This document shows, piece after piece, positions 5,813 to 59,381 of a DNA stretch of 64,000 nucleotides (within the stretch, counting starts at the first letter, position 1; each line of letters opens with the position of its first letter). Where the stretch lies: positions 930,001 to 994,000 of the forward strand of contig NZ_CP090365.1 of assembly GCF_021432065.1 (NCBI RefSeq), in the 5' to 3' direction. The translations under genes were made by a program, and so were the position numbers. Under the pieces are notes generated by a model, which saw nothing but the letters and a program-made list of their open reading frames with translations, had not been told where the DNA came from and did not search any database. The DNA comes from Photobacterium sp. TLY01. Its GTDB lineage: Bacteria; Pseudomonadota; Gammaproteobacteria; Enterobacterales; Vibrionaceae.

Positions 5813-5924
5813 CGGCATCCCTTGCTATCAAAATCATCGTTTGATTACGCAGGGGTGACGAACAGTCGCCGGGTTACACTTCGTGAGCATCCTGGTCAGG
5901 ATGAGAAGGTGACGGGCAATGCTG

Positions 5925-6008
5925 CTAGTTCCCTACGCCAGTATTAACTGGATCAGGTTCAACGGGTCCCACTCTGTGGTCTCAGCCTTACGGCTCCCCG
6001 ACTAACGT
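5925..6008 (-). promoter_or_regulatory. TPP riboswitch (Thi box)
   Basis: On the minus strand the conserved TPP-aptamer pieces occur in order: GTCGGGGAGCC, GCTGAGA, ACCCGTTGAACCTGATC and CTGGCGTAGGGAAC. It heads the thiD operon. Between it and thiD lies a hairpin CATCCTG-AC-CAGGATG (plus-strand 5890-5905) that may be part of the expression platform. High TPP should switch off HMP salvage and import. Confidence 0.96.
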
Positions 6009-6202
6009 ATTTCTTCATCTGATGCGATGTGCTGAAACTAACATTTAAGCACTTTTTCGCGCCGGTCATTCTAACCTTGTTGTTTCTCAGAAAGCAAAAG
6101 AATTACACCAAATTGGTGACAGGTGAGTTTAATGAGGTAAAACCAGCTAAGCTTTCGTTGTCGATCATGTCTTTTGAAATCAGCCATTAAGGAGCCGCCA
6201 CA

Positions 6203-51484: not shown

Positions 51485-51956
51485 ATGAGCATCAATATCA
51501 GAAAAGCAGAAATCAGTGATGCGAAGTCAATCAGTGAATTGATTTTACCTTTAACAGCAAAATATGTTTGCCCAACTTGTGATGCGTCTGTCCACGATAT
51601 TTTGCTCGATTCAATGTCAGAGGAAAGCATCGGCAAATATCTATCCACAAATTATGACTATGTTGTCGCAGTAACAACGAACAATGAAGTGGTCGGTGTG
51701 GCTGGGATTCGAGACAACTCACACTTGTACCATCTATTCGTAGACGATAATTTTCAAGGTAAAGGACTTTCCCGAAAATTGTGGGAAACAATTAAAAAAA
51801 GAAGCAGTAAAAAACGGGAATAGAGGTGCCTTTACTGTTAACTCTGCGGTAAATGCGGAAAACGTTTATTTGCGTTTCGGTTTTAAACGCACAGAAGGAA
51901 TCAGAAACCGTCATGGAATGGTTGATATTCCAATGATGTTTGAGTCTGATTGCTAA
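51485..51956 (+). pseudogene. Cassette GNAT acetyltransferase with frameshift
   Basis: The N-terminal frame (51485-51823) encodes a GNAT start and acetyl-CoA loop (LFVDDNFQGKGLSRKLWETI). It shifts out after a run of seven A (51794-51800). In the +1 frame the natural C-terminus continues from GAFTVNSAVNAENVYLRFGF to the TAA at 51954 that opens the next attC. Removing one A restores a 156-residue acetyltransferase. It could be a real mutation, sequencing error, or slippage at the A-run. Confidence 0.82.
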
Positions 51957-52086
51957 CAAACGCCGTAAGAGGGACTGTCAACGCGTGGCGTTTCCAGTCC
52001 CATTGAGCCGCGGTGGTGATGGTTGTTGTGTTTGAGTTTAGCGGTATGCGTTGCCAGCCCCTTAGGCGGGCTACATGGACTCCCCC

Positions 52087-52335
52087 GGTTGTCAACAACA
52101 GCGTCAGGTTCTATAAGGTTTGGGACTGCCGCTTTACATTCGGTCTGTTGATTGGCATTGATGCCATGACCCTGATGACCCTGCTCGGTTGAGGTTCCTC
52201 ATTCGTTAGAAGGCATCAAACGTGCCCGCCGCATTATCAGGTTTTCCCGCAAAAGGTCTGAACCTTATATCATCATTGGCTGTTGCAATGATCCGGTGAA
52301 GCAATTGATTCCGCTGTACAAAAACATGCTCAATT
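52087..52335 (-). ncRNA. Candidate guide RNA (seekRNA/bridge RNA) of the IS1111 element
   Basis: This is the noncoding tail downstream of the transposase. IS1111 elements are known to encode their guide RNA there. On the minus strand it contains GGCGGGC (52230-52224), identical to the left target flank at 52065-52071. After 15 nt it contains TAACGAATGA (52208-52199), the reverse complement of the right junction TCATTCGTTA at 53418-53427. The RNA ends cannot be read. The match lengths make chance possible but unlikely at these positions. Confidence 0.65.
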
Positions 52336-53349
52336 TTATATCAGTTGATACTCAGTCTCGTTTCTCAATAACGACCAAATGATTCGGGCGTTATTGGCTG
52401 CGAGCGCGACAATCGCCCGTTTGAACCCTCGACGCTCGACCAGACTTTTGCACCACAAGCTGAGTCGGTCAGTTTTATCGCCGAGACTGGCGATAACAGC
52501 ACGTGCACCATGAACCAAGAGTGTCCGCAGATATCGGTCGCCTTTTTTGGTAATTCGTCCGAGCCTTGGCTTACCACCGGTTGAATACTGGCTGGGAACC
52601 AACCCGAGCCAGGCGGCGAAATCCCGTCCTTTATCGAATTGCTCACCTTTGCCGATACTGGCGATGACGGCTGTCGCTGTAATGGGTCCAATGCCTGCCA
52701 CCTTCATGATTTTCTTTGCTTGGCGGCTGCGAGAAACCAGCATATCGAAGCATTGTTCTTGGTCTGCAATACGTTGATTCAGAATGAGCAAGTGCCCGAA
52801 ACAGTCTGAAATGATCGCTCTGGCGAGATCAGGGAGTGGGTTGTCACCATCTTCAAGCGCTTCGGGGATAGCGGTTTGTAATGCGTGGCGTCCTTTCGGC
52901 GCGATAATGCCGAACTCAGCCAGCATGGCGCGAATTTGATTCAGTAATGCCGTTCGTTCATGGACCCAATGATCACGCGCACGATGCAGGAGCAAAATCG
53001 CTTGCTGGTCGGCCGATTTGATCCGGACGAAGCGTGTTGAAGGACGGATGACAGCTGTGCAAATGGCAAAGGCGTCATTGAGATCATTTTTGGCACCGGT
53101 TCTGAAAGGTGCCACATACTTCGACGCCATGATCTTTGGCGTATGGCCGAGCTTCGCCAGTTCTCGGGCCCAGTAATGAGAGGCACCGCAGGCTTCCATA
53201 CCGATAATTGCGGGTGGGATATTAGCAAACGTCTCAAGGACTTTTGACCGCGTTATTGTTTTGTGGATCAACACCTTGCCTTGATGATCTTCACCGTGGA
53301 TACTGAAGCTATGTTTGGCTAAATCAATGCCATAAATAGAATGTGACAT
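52336..53349 (-). CDS. IS1111-type transposase (DEDD)
   Basis: This 337-residue transposase has an N-terminal DEDD RuvC-like domain: D in YGIDLAKHSFS, E in IGMEACGASHYWARE, D in TGAKNDLNDAFAI. The C-terminal Transposase_20 domain contains VAGIGPITATAVIASIG and FAAWLGLVPSQYSTGGK. It also has the conserved serine region near the end of the family (GGKPRLGRITKKG). The ATG at 53349 has CCGGAGG upstream; the longer frame to 53421 runs through the IS end. The frame is intact. Confidence 0.93.
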   Translation of the reverse strand: MSHSIYGIDLAKHSFSIHGEDHQGKVLIHKTITRSKVLETFANIPPAIIGMEACGASHYWARELAKLGHTPKIMASKYVAPFRTGAKNDLNDAFAICTAVIRPSTRFVRIKSADQQAILLLHRARDHWVHERTALLNQIRAMLAEFGIIAPKGRHALQTAIPEALEDGDNPLPDLARAIISDCFGHLLILNQRIADQEQCFDMLVSRSRQAKKIMKVAGIGPITATAVIASIGKGEQFDKGRDFAAWLGLVPSQYSTGGKPRLGRITKKGDRYLRTLLVHGARAVIASLGDKTDRLSLWCKSLVERRGFKRAIVALAANNARIIWSLLRNETEYQLI

Positions 53350-53444
53350 GGTGGCCTCCGGTAGTTGCAAGATAAGACTTACCAAGTGTGGCAAAGCCTG
53401 ATGAGGGGGAGTCCATGTCATTCGTTATGTGGCAAAGAGGAAAT

Positions 53445-53915
53445 ATGGAAATTTCATTACTAGCGGATTGTCCGTCTGAAGCACCAAAAATAGCTAAGTG
53501 GTATTACGATGAGTGGGCGAGAATGGCTCCGAATGTAACCGAAGAAATGGTGCTCGAAAAGGTCATCGAAAAGTCAGTAAACCGAAACCAAATCCCCTTG
53601 TCATTTGTTGCTCATATTGACAGTGAACTCGCTGGTGTTTTAGAGCTCAAAGTTCGTGAAAACAAAAATTATCCAGAGTACGAAAACTGGGTTGGTGGTG
53701 TATACACAAATCCAAAGTATAGGGGTAAGGGTATCGCCAGCAAGTTACTTGAATCAGCAAAAGAAAAAGCAATCGATATTGGTGTTAAAAAGCTCTATCT
53801 GCAATGTGAAAGTTTTAATGTTTCCCTGTACTTAAATCATGGTTTTAGCGTTTTACACCAAGCGCAGCATCATGACATAGAAACAACTATTATGGTGTGG
53901 GAAGCTGCCACATAA
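53445..53915 (+). CDS. Cassette GNAT N-acetyltransferase
   Basis: This is a 156-residue GNAT protein. It has the acetyl-CoA motif VGGVYTNPKYRGKGIASKLLESAKEKA (pattern R-x-x-G-x-G/A) and a C-terminal LYLQCESFNVSLYLNHGFSVL strand. The ATG at 53445 follows AGAGGAAAT and lies 15 nt after the GTTATGT core, as cassette genes do; the upstream in-frame GTG at 53388 would lie in the IS. The acceptor substrate is unknown; similar cassette genes include aminoglycoside and protein acetyltransferases. Confidence 0.87.
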   Translation: MEISLLADCPSEAPKIAKWYYDEWARMAPNVTEEMVLEKVIEKSVNRNQIPLSFVAHIDSELAGVLELKVRENKNYPEYENWVGGVYTNPKYRGKGIASKLLESAKEKAIDIGVKKLYLQCESFNVSLYLNHGFSVLHQAQHHDIETTIMVWEAAT

Positions 53916-54038
53916 CAAACGCCTCAAGAGAGACTGTCAACGCTTAGCGTTTCCAGTCCCATTGAGCCGCGGTGGTTATAGTTGTAGTGTTTGGGGTTAG
54001 TGGTTGTGTGTTGTCAGCCCCTTAGGCGGGCGTTATAG
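53913..54038 (+). other. attC site 3, intact
   Basis: This site of about 126 bp runs from TAACAAACGCCTCAAGAG to CCCTTAGGCGGGCGTTATAG. The arms GCCTCAAGAG..GACTGTCAACGC and GTTGTCAGCCCCTTAGGCGGGC pair with the bulges normal for attC. It shares the central block CCATTGAGCCGCGGTGGT with attC 2 and is closely similar to attC 4. Confidence 0.93.
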
Positions 54039-54050
54039 CGCAAGGTAAAA

Positions 54051-54587
54051 ATGAAACCTATCGTTGATTTAATTAGAAAAGATCCTATTCGACTTGAAGC
54101 ACTGGAATGTGTTTATCAGCTTGAATTGCCTGAATGCTATATAGCCGCAGGTTTTGTACGAAACCTTGTTTGGGATTTCTTACATCACAAAGTAAAGCTG
54201 ACGCCATTAAATGACATTGATGTCATTTTTTTCGATGCCAATTGTTTAGATTCAGATTATGAAAAATCACTTGAACTCAAGTTGTTGGAGCAAATGCCCC
54301 AGCTCAATTGGCAAGTAAAAAATCAAGCCAAGATGTACTTACAAAATGGCGACAACCCTTACCAAAGCACATTGGATGCCATGAGCTATTGGCCTGAAAA
54401 AGAAACGGCGGTGGCTGTAAGAAAAGTCGAGCACGACGATTACGAATGTATATCAGCCTTCGGTTTTGAGAGTTTATTTCAAGGTCTCATCTCACATAAT
54501 CCTAGGCGGGCATATGAGACCTTCGAAAATCGAGTAAAGTCAAAAGGTTGGTTGGCTATGTGGCCTAACTTGAGAATTGCGCCATAA
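54051..54587 (+). CDS. Cassette nucleotidyltransferase-fold protein
   Basis: This 178-residue protein of the DUF925-type nucleotidyltransferase family has the early AAGFVRNLVWDFLH (G-x-x-R-N). The metal-binding DID motif is in LNDIDVIFFD, and FGFESLFQGLISHNPRR occurs in the C-terminal part. The ATG is 13 nt after the attC 3 core with AAGG upstream. The family's substrate is unknown. The gene is bounded by attC 3 and attC 4, hence a cassette. Confidence 0.87.
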   Translation: MKPIVDLIRKDPIRLEALECVYQLELPECYIAAGFVRNLVWDFLHHKVKLTPLNDIDVIFFDANCLDSDYEKSLELKLLEQMPQLNWQVKNQAKMYLQNGDNPYQSTLDAMSYWPEKETAVAVRKVEHDDYECISAFGFESLFQGLISHNPRRAYETFENRVKSKGWLAMWPNLRIAP

Positions 54588-54711
54588 CAAACGCCTCAAG
54601 AGTGACTGTCAACGCATGTCGTTTCCACACCCATTGAGCCGCGGTAGTTATGGCTGTTGTGTTTGAGTTTAGTGGTAGATCGTTGCCAGCCGCTTTAGGC
54701 TGGCGTTATAA
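54585..54711 (+). other. attC site 4
   Basis: This site of about 127 bp runs from TAACAAACGCCTCAAGAG to GCTTTAGGCTGGCGTTATAA. It is like attC 3 with compensating changes in the arms. It is followed after 11 nt by an IS3-family end. Confidence 0.92.
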
Positions 54712-54738: not shown

Positions 54739-55560
54739 TTAATGGCAGCCTAAATTAGAGTTTTTCCTGCTTTCGTACCTTGCTAAGTATTCCCACGGGG
54801 TCAGATCATCAAGGGCATCATGAGGGCGTTCATCGTTATATTCCTTCATCCATTGTTCGGTTAACTCTCGAACTTCACTCAGCGTTTTAAAAACGTACAT
54901 ATCGAGAAGTTCTGTGCGATAGGTTCGATTAAAGCGCTCAATATATGAGTTCTCAGTGGGTTTTCCTGGTCGAATAAATTCAAGTTCAACTCGATTTTCT
55001 TCGGCCCATTCGGCTAACGCTGTGGAGATAAATTCTGGACCATTATCCATCCTGAGTTTGCCGGGCATCCCGCGCCACGCTGTGATACGCTCCAAAACCC
55101 GGATGACTCTTGGGGCTGGTAAATTTAAGTCCACTTCGATGGCTAACACTTCGCGGTTAAAATCATCGACAACATTAAACGTACGAAAACGTCTGCCGCA
55201 AGCCAGAGCGTCACTCATAAAATCAATCGACCAACAGCCGTTCACCCCGTCAGGACGTGCCAGCGTGACTGGCTCCCGTTTCGGTAACCGCTTTTTTCCT
55301 TTGCGTCTCATATTGAGCTTGAGTGAGCAGTAAACACGGTAAACGCGCTTGTGGTTCCATGGATATCCCCAGCGTCTGAGAACTTTAAATAACTTGCCAA
55401 AACCATAAGCAGGATATCGCTCTACGGCTTCTTGCAACTTGGCGATGACCTCATCATCTCGATGAGGGTCTGGTTGATATCGATAGACAGAATCACTGAT
55501 GCCAACTGCGCGGCAGGCCATTCTGAGACTGACCCGAAATTGCTGACGAACATACTCCAC
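54739..55560 (-). CDS. IS3-family OrfB
   Basis: This is the integrase half of the transposase. It has D in GCWSIDFMSDAL, D in LRMDNGPEFIS and E in NSYIERFNRTYRTELLD, with YNDERPHDALDDLTPWEYL at the end, as in IS407/IS2-type OrfB. It is probably made as a -1 fusion from orfA at an A-run (minus strand AAAAAAAG near 55598-55591). Confidence 0.92.
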   Translation of the reverse strand: MEYVRQQFRVSLRMACRAVGISDSVYRYQPDPHRDDEVIAKLQEAVERYPAYGFGKLFKVLRRWGYPWNHKRVYRVYCSLKLNMRRKGKKRLPKREPVTLARPDGVNGCWSIDFMSDALACGRRFRTFNVVDDFNREVLAIEVDLNLPAPRVIRVLERITAWRGMPGKLRMDNGPEFISTALAEWAEENRVELEFIRPGKPTENSYIERFNRTYRTELLDMYVFKTLSEVRELTEQWMKEYNDERPHDALDDLTPWEYLARYESRKNSNLGCH

Positions 55561-55583
55561 GAGTTCGCGTTTAACCGCTGGCT

Positions 55584-55853
55584 TTACAGCTTTTTTTCCA
55601 GAATATCTTTCACAATACGATGCTCAAGGCTGAGGTCAGCGAACATCTGCTTGAGTCGGCGATTTTCATCTTCAAGCTCTTTCAGCCGCTTCACATCGGA
55701 CGCTTCCATACCACCATATTTCGATTTCCAGTTGTAATAGGTAGCGTCAGAGATACCGTATTCACGACAGACTTCGTTGACCTTACGGCCAGCCTCCACT
55801 TCCTTCAGGATCTTCACGATCTGTGTTTCTGTGTAGCGTGATTTTTTCATCAT
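55584..55853 (-). CDS. IS3-family OrfA
   Basis: This 89-residue protein has a helix-turn-helix (YTETQIVKILKEVEAGRKVNEVCREYGISDATYYNWKSKYGG). A zipper follows (VKRLKELEDENRRLKQMFADLSLE). The sequence SKYGGM with RLKELEDENRRLK is typical of the IS407 group. The end KDILEKKL overlaps the slippery site. Confidence 0.92.
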   Translation of the reverse strand: MMKKSRYTETQIVKILKEVEAGRKVNEVCREYGISDATYYNWKSKYGGMEASDVKRLKELEDENRRLKQMFADLSLEHRIVKDILEKKL

Positions 55854-55931
55854 GCGTTCTCCGTTTATTTCAGTGTAAACGGAAAAGCTCTAATTACTAG
55901 CGACATGTTTTTCGGGGAGGGTTACACCATC

Positions 55932-56957
55932 ATGGACAATTTACATATTCTTGGTATCGATCTAGGCAGACATACTTTTCACTGTATCGGACATGACAAG
56001 CATGGGCATGAGGTGTGTCGTAAGAAATTCAATCGGGCTCAACTGCTTTTATGGCTCTCTAATTTACCGCAGACAACTGTGGCATTTGAGTCTTGCGGCG
56101 GCGCGCATTGGTTAGCCCGAAAATGTGAAAGTTACGGGCACGAAGCAAAACTCATCCCACCTCAATATGTAAAGCCTTATGTGAAATCAAATAAAAACGA
56201 TTTCATTGATGCGGCGGCGATTGCTGAAGCTGCATCCCGTCCATCAATGCGCTTTGCTGCCGTGAAGTCAGAAAACGCCCAGATCATCAGTACCATAAAT
56301 CGAGCAAGAGAGGCGTATATCAAAGAACGTACGGCGACCATGCTCAGAATTGGTGGAATTCTTGTTGAATTCGGACTCAGTCTTCCCAACGGTCATTCAA
56401 CGATGAAAAAGTTATTTCAATGGATTGCAGAGCAAAATCAATCACTGCCTCAAGCTTTACTCTTGGAGTTAAAAGAACTTCACGAGCACTACCTGTACCT
56501 CACTGAGCACGTTCAGAAGCAAGAACAGAAATTAATCCAAATGACCTCTGATAATGAAATCGGTGAATTGCTTATGACTATCCCTGGTGTTGCTCATATC
56601 ACAGCGAGCTCATGCTTGGCTGAGATTGCCTCTCCGGGAAATTTCAAGTGTGGCCGTGATATGGCAGCATGGATAGGATTGGTTCCGAGACAGTACTCTA
56701 CAGGTGGGAAAACCACATTATTAGGGATAAGCAAGCGGGGTAATAAAAAACTCAGAACATTATTTATTCATTGCGCCCGTGCTGTCTTATCTAAGCCAGA
56801 AACAACGGGAAAATGCTTCGAACCCTGGCTCAGTAATCTGAGGGCAAGCAAACCTTTTAATGTCGTTGTTGTCGCACTGGCTAACAAGTTAGTGCGGATC
56901 GCCTGGGCTGTGATGAATTCACACCGAGCGTTCAACGCCAACAACCTTGCTTGCTAA
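55932..56957 (+). CDS. IS1111-type transposase, second type
   Basis: This 341-residue DEDD transposase has D in LGIDLGRHTFH, E in VAFESCGGAHWLARK and D in KSNKNDFIDAAAIAEA. The C-terminal domain includes TIPGVAHITASSCLAEI and MAAWIGLVPRQYSTGGK. The ATG at 55932 (MDNLHILG) is chosen; the frame to 55905 starts inside the IS3-family end. The coding frame is intact, but its own upstream region has been replaced, so expression depends on outward transcription from the neighbour. Confidence 0.9.
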   Translation: MDNLHILGIDLGRHTFHCIGHDKHGHEVCRKKFNRAQLLLWLSNLPQTTVAFESCGGAHWLARKCESYGHEAKLIPPQYVKPYVKSNKNDFIDAAAIAEAASRPSMRFAAVKSENAQIISTINRAREAYIKERTATMLRIGGILVEFGLSLPNGHSTMKKLFQWIAEQNQSLPQALLLELKELHEHYLYLTEHVQKQEQKLIQMTSDNEIGELLMTIPGVAHITASSCLAEIASPGNFKCGRDMAAWIGLVPRQYSTGGKTTLLGISKRGNKKLRTLFIHCARAVLSKPETTGKCFEPWLSNLRASKPFNVVVVALANKLVRIAWAVMNSHRAFNANNLAC

Positions 56958-57189: not shown

Positions 57190-57459
57190 ATTGTGCCAGC
57201 AAAGAGTAACTGGCGCGCATCCTGCGGTGCTGAGAAAAACACCGAACTCAAGCGCGACATGCAATCCGCAAGAATTGATGTCCTTTTAAAGTGGTTCGTG
57301 GATTAACACCTTGCTTTGGTGATCTTCACCGTGGATACTGAAATTATGATTAGGCTAAATCAATGCCATAGACAAAATGTGACATGGTGGCCTCCGATAA
57401 TTTCGTAGTCAGACTTACCAAGCGTGGCAGAGCCTGATGAGGGGGAGTCCATGTCATTC
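57190..57459. repeat. Composite repeat copy 1 with IS1111 right-end remnant
   Basis: The first part (to about 57260) is the TGTGCCAGCAAAGAGTAACTGG..CTCAAGCGCGACAT repeat. After a short spacer comes a right-end fragment (about 57297-57459) of an IS1111 element like that at 52071, including its transposase start region and the GGGGGAGTCCA end. It abuts a cassette core GTTATAT at 57460. The transposase remnant is frameshifted. Confidence 0.85.
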
Positions 57460-59085: not shown

Positions 59086-59350
59086 TGGTTACGCTTTGTG
59101 CCAGCAAAGAGTAACTGGCGCGCATCCTGCGGTGCTGAGAAAAACACCGAACTCAAGCGCGACATACAATCCGCAAGAATTGATGTCCTTTTAAAGTGGT
59201 TCGTGATCAACAACTTGCTTTGGTGATCTTCACCTTGGATACTGACACTATGTTTGGCTAAATCAATGCCATAGACAAATTGTGACATAGTGGCCTCCGG
59301 TCATTTCGTAGTCAGACTTATCAAGTGTGGCAGAGCCTGATGAGGGGAAG
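59086..59350. repeat. Composite repeat copy 2 with IS1111 right-end remnant
   Basis: It has the same two-part structure as 57190-57459: the GGTTACGCTTTGTGCC..GCGCGACAT repeat (59086-59165), a spacer, then an IS1111 right-end fragment (about 59205-59350). On the minus strand that fragment encodes MSQFVYGIDLAKHSVSIQGE before decaying. The repeat-IS junction is at the same base as in copy 1. Confidence 0.85.
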
Positions 59351-59381
59351 TTTGTGTTATTTTTATGTGTAAGAGGTATGG

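What the first reader, a model, noticed from the sequence alone, without database searches (positions are those of the whole stretch)
52087..53430. IS1111 noncoding tail carries both target guides for the attC site it sits in
Seen directly: the element is inserted between GGCGGG and CGTTATGT of attC 2. Its noncoding tail, read on the transposase strand, contains GGCGGGC (52230-52224), the same as the left target flank. Fifteen nt later it contains TAACGAATGA (52208-52199), the complement of the right junction TCATTCGTTA (5 nt of IS plus 5 nt of attC core). Known: IS110/IS1111 transposases use an RNA encoded in their noncoding end, with a left guide pairing one target strand and a right guide the other; IS1111-attC elements target attC. 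The inference is that this tail is an attC-seeking RNA whose guide loops are visible here.
Basis: partly seen in the sequence, partly recalled or inferred. Interest (0 to 1): 0.85.

Follow-up and report, generated by a model that had tools for sequence, protein, structure and literature searches.

The report
Jumping gene with attC-seeking guide RNA

Summary
The element is real: an IS1111-type insertion sequence, 52072-53423 (-), in a VCR-like attC of a Photobacterium-like cassette array. In 105 parsed relatives the true right target guide is the 10 nt before a conserved hairpin (here AUAAUGCGGC(G), 52237-52227); it covaries with the target (0 of 5000 shuffles as good). The hairpin (52226-52212) has compensatory changes in all four pairs. 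In TAACGAATGA only TAACG is target guide. I also found two donor guides: the left one matches its own circle junction in 19 of 20 elements and foreign junctions in 0 of 120; the one miss is the window copy. Joined ends make a promoter (TTGACA-16-TAGAAT). SeekRNAs of attC-targeting IS1111 elements (ISKpn4, ISPst6) are published, so this is a new member of a known kind. Side finding: left ends of this IS outnumber right ends 105:25 in six genomes, unexplained.

The parts
52072..53423 (-). IS1111-family element, 1352 bp
   Evidence: ends by sTIR with 7/3-nt extensions, as in the extracted relatives
52336..53421 (-). transposase ORF (361 aa as listed; likely start at about 53349, MSHSIYGIDLAK, behind GGAGG, by eye)
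   Evidence: Pfam DEDD_Tnp_IS110 + Transposase_20; NCBIfam IS110 family RNA-guided transposase 333.9 bits, cut-off 140
53405..53423 (-). left end: 7-nt extension GAATGAC + 12-bp sTIR
52072..52086 (-). right end: 12-bp sTIR + 3-nt extension GTA
52165..52278 (-). modelled core of the bridge/seekRNA
   Evidence: covariance model R1; 119.6 bits in own genome
52227..52237 (-). right target guide AUAAUGCGGC(G)
   Evidence: covaries with target in 105 elements
52212..52226 (-). hairpin P3 between the two target guides (GGCA...UGCC)
   Evidence: all 4 pairs with compensatory changes, 99.6% of cells paired
52204..52208 (-). left target guide UAACG
   Evidence: matches attC R' core; invariant with its target
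52175..52179 (-). right donor guide GUCAU (complement of left-end nt 3-7)
52134..52139 (-). left donor guide AUGUAA (consensus AUGUAG); differs from its own junction at the last base
52090..52095 (-). -35 TTGACA of the circle-junction promoter; the -10 TAGAAT forms from 52073-52072 plus 53423-53420
51954..52071 (+). 5' part of the interrupted attC; its R' core GTTATGT is at 53424-53430

Best explanation
This is an IS1111-family insertion sequence of an attC-targeting clade of Vibrionaceae. When its ends join in a circle they make a promoter that would transcribe the transposase and the tail. The tail RNA carries four guides in the order right target, left target, right donor, left donor. The two target guides flank one hairpin in one internal loop and pair with the two strands of attC around TAAC|GC; the two donor guides pair with the joined ends. 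The transposase uses this RNA to recombine the circle into attC. Shown here: anatomy, loop structure, covariation of the right target guide with target and of both donor guides with the element's own ends, the junction promoter sequence. Inferred: that the RNA is made, binds this transposase and directs insertion; whether this particular copy is still active.
For: 105 parsed elements: own-target match of the right guide (best of two offsets) 7.76 of 10 vs 7.04 shuffled, 0 of 5000 shuffles as good; 54 distinct pairs 7.15 vs 6.34, 0 of 5000; 15 distinct guides 7.27 vs 5.60, 0 of 5000. Retargeted guides: UUAGCUUGG in TTAGCTTGGC (L206), CUAUAAAGC in CTATAAAGC (L204, L214), UGUGCUCAG in TGTGCTCAGC (L203, L205), UAUGCAGGC in TATGCAGGC (L042); L042 and L044 are 93.8% identical but carry different guides. 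Structure: 62 distinct RNAs, 90.4% of cells paired vs 82.6% shuffled, 15 of 23 pairs with double changes vs 9.1, 0 of 500; sliding the partner by 1-3 columns gives 24-51% paired. That alignment is fitted to the structure; on the unfitted alignment of 27 RNAs RNAalifold by itself finds the loop helices P2 and P3, with double changes in all four P3 pairs. Donor guides: left 19 of 20 own vs 0 of 120 foreign; right 13 of 20 exact, mean 4.55 vs 3.44 foreign (7 of 346 foreign exact), 0 of 20000 permutations. Junction promoter: strict rule 88 of 110 at joined ends, 0 of 110 at either uncut end. Published precedent: ISKpn4 and ISPst6 seekRNAs co-purify with the transposase, and ISPa25's is predicted with the same matches (PMC11187229, sections 8 and 9 read).
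Against: The window's own guide-target pair is poor: 5 of 10 in the strict register, 6 by best-of-two offsets, among the lowest 24 of 105. Its left donor guide has a base change seen in 1 of 110 relatives and its outer stem P1 a C-U mismatch (read by eye), so this copy may be worn. The 264-nt tail alone does not fold better than shuffles (z -0.58) and its minimum-energy fold lacks this loop. The left target guide does not vary, so it has no covariation test within the clade. Four elements with left end GAATGGC have a right donor guide matching only 3 of 5, and seven more of 110 do not match fully or were not found. In four of the 105 rows (L159, L160, L216, L217) the right flank looks, by eye, like another IS copy; they were kept in the counts. 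The 110 elements are 100 distinct sequences from 107 loci, so they are not all independent. RNAalifold also offers two pairs across the guide loop (columns 50-73, 51-72).
Confidence: 0.9

Rival explanations
1. One reading: GGCGGGC (52230-52224) is the right target guide, with TAACGAATGA reading the whole right junction.
For: Exact 7-nt and 10-nt matches in this copy; this copy's target fits GGCGGGC better than the family register. Over all 105 rows the register is slightly better than shuffles (107 of 5000 as good).
Against: 27 of 28 RNAs with GGCGGGC lie in targets without it; no covariation for distinct pairs (1425 of 5000); three of its bases are in a hairpin with compensatory changes; IS5075 and L218 follow the target, not the left end, at the second segment.
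Confidence: 0.05
2. This copy is a relic: the family RNA works as described but this copy's donor guide and outer stem are damaged, and it sits where it landed long ago.
For: Left donor guide AUGUAA instead of AUGUAG, 1 of 110; P1 mismatch (by eye); poor guide-target match; one full-length DNA match in the genome, with three RNA-model matches.
Against: Uninterrupted transposase frame and matching ends; single guide mismatches may be tolerated (recalled for bridge RNAs, not tested here).
Confidence: 0.35
3. The tail is conserved as DNA (ends, transposase binding) and not as a guide RNA.
For: Right end and sTIR lie in it; no expression data here.
Against: Compensatory RNA pairs, guide-target covariation, published seekRNAs in attC relatives (PMC11187229).
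Confidence: 0.03

Closest known systems
IS1111-attC elements ISKpn4, ISPst6, ISPa25 (seekRNA; PMC11187229, passages and sections 7-10 and 13 read)
   Same: DEDD transposase with downstream NCR, sTIR with 7/3 extensions, insertion at one end of attC, two target matches in the order top-strand complement then bottom-strand match
   Different: taken to be another clade (Photobacterium/Vibrio); here retargeted right guides and donor guides are shown by covariation; I did not obtain ISKpn4, ISPst6 or ISPa25 sequences to compare
IS621 bridge RNA, IS110 group (PMC11208160, passages and section 12 read)
   Same: target and donor guides in one RNA pairing with both strands
   Different: IS110-group RNAs lie mostly in the left end (PMC11208160) and their guide order is the reverse (PMC11187229); here the RNA is in the right end, right target guide first
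ISPa11 and five other elements with four predicted guides (PMC11208160 Extended Data Fig. 10 legend)
   Same: LTG, RTG, LDG, RDG predicted in one RNA
   Different: the figure itself was not held; no sequence comparison made
IS5075 / IS4321 (Tn21-family end targeting; target recalled and in a paper title)
   Same: CCUG-guide-hairpin-guide-CAUCAGG layout in IS5075 (hairpin by eye); the RNA model reaches the IS4321 locus at 24.8 bits but not the IS5075 locus
   Different: different target and different guides

Membership tests
IS1111 family | DEDD + Transposase_20 transposase | tested here: met
   GIDLAK, GMEACG, KNDLNDA align with IS4321/IS5075 (motif roles recalled)
IS1111 family | sub-terminal inverted repeats with 7- and 3-nt extensions | tested here: met
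   12-bp perfect sTIR, GAATGAC and GTA
IS1111 family | longer non-coding region downstream of tnp | tested here: met
   264 nt, 52072-52335
IS1111-attC group | inserted in attC next to the GTTRRRY core, one orientation | tested here: met
   108 of 110 extracted elements have a left flank ending AAC; targets listed
seekRNA / bridge RNA | RNA loop with guides to both target strands, covarying with target | tested here: met
   right guide covaries; left guide invariant, so not testable within the clade
bridge RNA | donor guides matching the joined element ends | tested here: met
   at family level; the window copy's left donor guide is the one exception of 20
seekRNA / bridge RNA | RNA is made, binds the transposase and is needed for movement | not testable with these tools
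   needs experiment

The most novel reading that the evidence does not exclude
Left ends of these attC-seeking elements, which were found about four times more often than right ends in six Photobacterium genomes, often with an exact AAC|GAATGACATG edge, have been kept because they do something at cassette boundaries: they replace the R' half of attC in composite sites (one composite of about 385 bp occurs at six places with different flanks in two genomes), serve as recombination sites, or drive the next gene.
Probability: 0.08. Interest if true: 0.65.

Novelty: new member of a known kind. Interest (0 to 1): 0.3.

Why it matters
It corrects which bases of the tail are the guide, and shows that a four-guide IS1111 RNA can be read by comparison alone. 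The clade is a natural series of retargeted guides within one niche (attC), including sister elements 93.8% alike with different guides, so the order of guide change and site change could be studied. The mechanism itself is already published.

Tried and rejected
Single-sequence folding of the whole tail: not informative (z -0.58). My first helix P0 (GATGA with TCATC) overlaps the right donor guide and has almost no covariation (2 pairs never vary, 1 cell with a double change), so I do not claim it. Helix 2 of the model is only 71.7% paired. Miniature copies (550-637 bp, 6 of 110: L003, L064, L072, L089, L107, L195; a seventh, L130 at 390 bp, is a doubtful left-end call) keep both ends and the RNA. 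I suspected a spreading guide-carrying MITE, but a 107-nt deletion-junction query matched across the junction in 2 of 52 genomes, at 100% (its own source) and 76% (16 of 52 genomes gave any match), and by eye the deletions look independent; rejected. Composite attC-like sites: I first took the upstream half for a native attC; one search found that half in 19 of 52 genomes, one search showed that in many loci it runs on into other sequence, and in L277 the neighbouring frame is an IS110-family transposase, so the composite is best read as two attC-seeking IS ends joined. One copy folds with its ends paired but not better than shuffles (z -0.89); a VCR-like attC folded as control has z -3.30. 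The idea that TAACGAATGA recognises the left junction was tested on L218, IS5075 and L063: supported in none, a tie in the exact match of L063 (L218 by eye because the script's anchor failed). L060 and L221 were dropped from the donor-guide tests because their ends could not be placed; of 21 candidate loci 12 gave an element, L063 was added, and 9 of the clade's elements were hand-picked for the tests. L046, L130, L197, L198 and L200 were not parsed; 14 profile hits not reaching the right end and 25 without a left end were dropped, repeats too. The structural alignment holds 27 of 33 deduplicated segments (66 distinct); the model search was given 75 chosen loci and matched 74. Literature: IS1111 + miniature + integron gave 3 papers (passages of one); attC + insertion sequence + Photobacterium + superintegron gave none; some searches were seen as listings, apart from the two 2024 papers cited.

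Full report
What is there. The window lies on the second contig of a 4.7-Mb genome. Its host is taken to be Photobacterium because the closest named transposase (98%) is in P. salinisoli. On the minus strand an IS1111-type element occupies 52072-53423 (1352 bp). Its ends are a perfect 12-bp sub-terminal inverted repeat with the 7-nt and 3-nt extensions reported for the family (convention from PMC11187229, passages read). The transposase has both Pfam domains and fits the NCBIfam RNA-guided IS110 model. It interrupts a VCR-like attC that starts at 51954; intact sister sites lie at 53913-54035 and 54585-54708.

The observation. The element's boundaries in the finding are slightly off.

The comparison set. 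A search of 296 genomes of the family with the tail found matches in 101 (two candidates per genome were scored, so counts per genome are lower bounds). From 217 loci I extracted 110 elements with both ends (100 distinct sequences) and parsed 105 guide loops; what was dropped is told under Tried and rejected. Left flanks end in AAC in 108 of 110. The set was gathered with this element and its tail as queries, so it is one clade and not a sample of all IS1111.

The right target guide. The 10 nt after CCUG and before a hairpin follow the target: own-target match (best of two offsets) 7.76 of 10 against 7.04 in shuffles (0 of 5000), 7.15 against 6.34 for 54 distinct pairs (0 of 5000), 7.27 against 5.60 for 15 distinct guides (0 of 5000). 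Matching retargeted guides occur in L203, L204, L205, L206, L214, L042 and L077 and in most of the UUAAUUGGG group; L207, L213 and L215 of that group sit in TTAACAGGGC. L042 and L044 are 93.8% identical with different guides; L212 and L214 84.6%. In the window this guide is AUAAUGCGGC(G), 52237-52227.

GGCGGGC begins inside this guide and ends inside the hairpin P3 (52226-52212). P3 has compensatory changes in all four pairs in 62 distinct RNAs, 99.6% of cells paired (on an alignment fitted to the model), and RNAalifold finds it unaided on 27 RNAs, again with double changes in all four pairs. 28 of 105 RNAs contain GGCGGGC; among the 105 targets only the window's ends in it. In its register the own-target match does not beat shuffles for distinct pairs (1425 of 5000). 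The window's own pair is poor in the family register (5 of 10 strictly; 6 by best of two offsets), which tells against a strong match in this copy. Other copies in the set also tolerate mismatches in the middle positions.

The left target guide. UAACG follows the hairpin. It is invariant, and so nearly is its target, so within the clade it rests on position and on other-target relatives. IS5075 has AUAUUUUC matching its target across the insertion point, against 6 nt for the left-end junction. L218 has GCUUUGUUGA (read by eye). L063 has CUUUA, a tie between target and junction, and nine of ten target bases by eye. The conserved GAAT of the left end has another possible use: it completes the junction promoter.

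Donor guides. Right after CCG(R) the RNA repeats the last right-end bases plus the first left-end base: 19 of 20 elements over seven classes, and 0 of 120 foreign classes there (anywhere in the tail body, 6 of 120). The only miss is the window copy. The complement of left-end nt 3-7 stands before a CANGG-like word: 13 of 20 exact, mean 4.55 against 3.44 foreign (7 of 346 exact), 0 of 20000 permutations. In the clade 83 of 110 elements pair ATGAC with GUCAU and 16 pair ATGAT with AUCAU; four with ATGGC do not follow, and seven others do not match fully or were not found. Four guides per RNA were already predicted for six published elements, ISPa11 among them (PMC11208160, legend of Extended Data Fig. 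10 read).

Expression. Joined ends give TTGACA-16-TAGAAT in the window; a strict rule holds in 88 of 110 at the joined ends and in 0 of 110 at either uncut end. This parallels the junction promoter of ISEc11 (PMC11187229, section 7 read).

Comparison with known work. ISKpn4 and ISPst6, which target attC, have seekRNAs that co-purify with their transposases, and the seekRNA predicted for ISPa25 holds the same target matches (PMC11187229, sections 7-10 and 13 read). The finding is therefore a new member of a known kind.

Side finding. With equal 150-bp queries, left ends gave 105 places and right ends 25 in six Photobacterium genomes. Of 70 solitary left ends examined, 47 have a flank ending AAC and 33 keep the exact AAC|GAATGACATG edge. 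One composite of 383-387 bp occurs six times, three times in each of two genomes, with different flanks, 82-93% alike; three of the six end in GTTA. Its other half is the end of what is best read as an IS110-family element. The genome has no integron integrase above the family cut-off, so here the arrays may be free to decay. Why left ends are kept is unexplained.

Noticed in passing
window 57292-57459 and 59205-59351; regions L245-L258: Solitary left ends of this IS without right ends. Left ends outnumber right ends 105:25 in six genomes with equal-length queries; 55 to 3 in regions chosen for left-end density plus the window.
   Followed up: partly
L248 1072-5261; also L067, L086, L247: Composite sites of 383-387 bp between gene ends and GTTA-like starts, made of an IS110-type end starting TAACAAACGACTATGG (one copy differs at one base) joined to an IS1111 left end; six copies in two genomes with different flanks, 82-93% identical.
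   Followed up: partly
L003, L064, L072, L089, L107, L195: Short copies of 550-637 bp with both ends and the guide RNA but no full transposase gene, each with an attC-like flank.
   Followed up: partly
own genome G000: No integron integrase above the TIGR02249 cut-off although attC-bearing cassettes are present.
   Followed up: no
window 55905-56957 (+): A second IS110/IS1111-type transposase; my search found no inverted-repeat ends for this copy, while a relative in the same genome, L025, has clear ends.
   Followed up: partly
window 55443-55585 (+): Rfam isrN match (52.1 bits) partly over an IS3-family transposase gene; probably IS sequence and not a separate sRNA.
   Followed up: no
L159, L160, L216, L217: Copies whose right flank looks, by eye, like transposase sequence of another IS copy, suggesting tandem or nested insertions.
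   Followed up: no
window 5913-6010 (-): TPP riboswitch, 74.9 bits.
   Followed up: no
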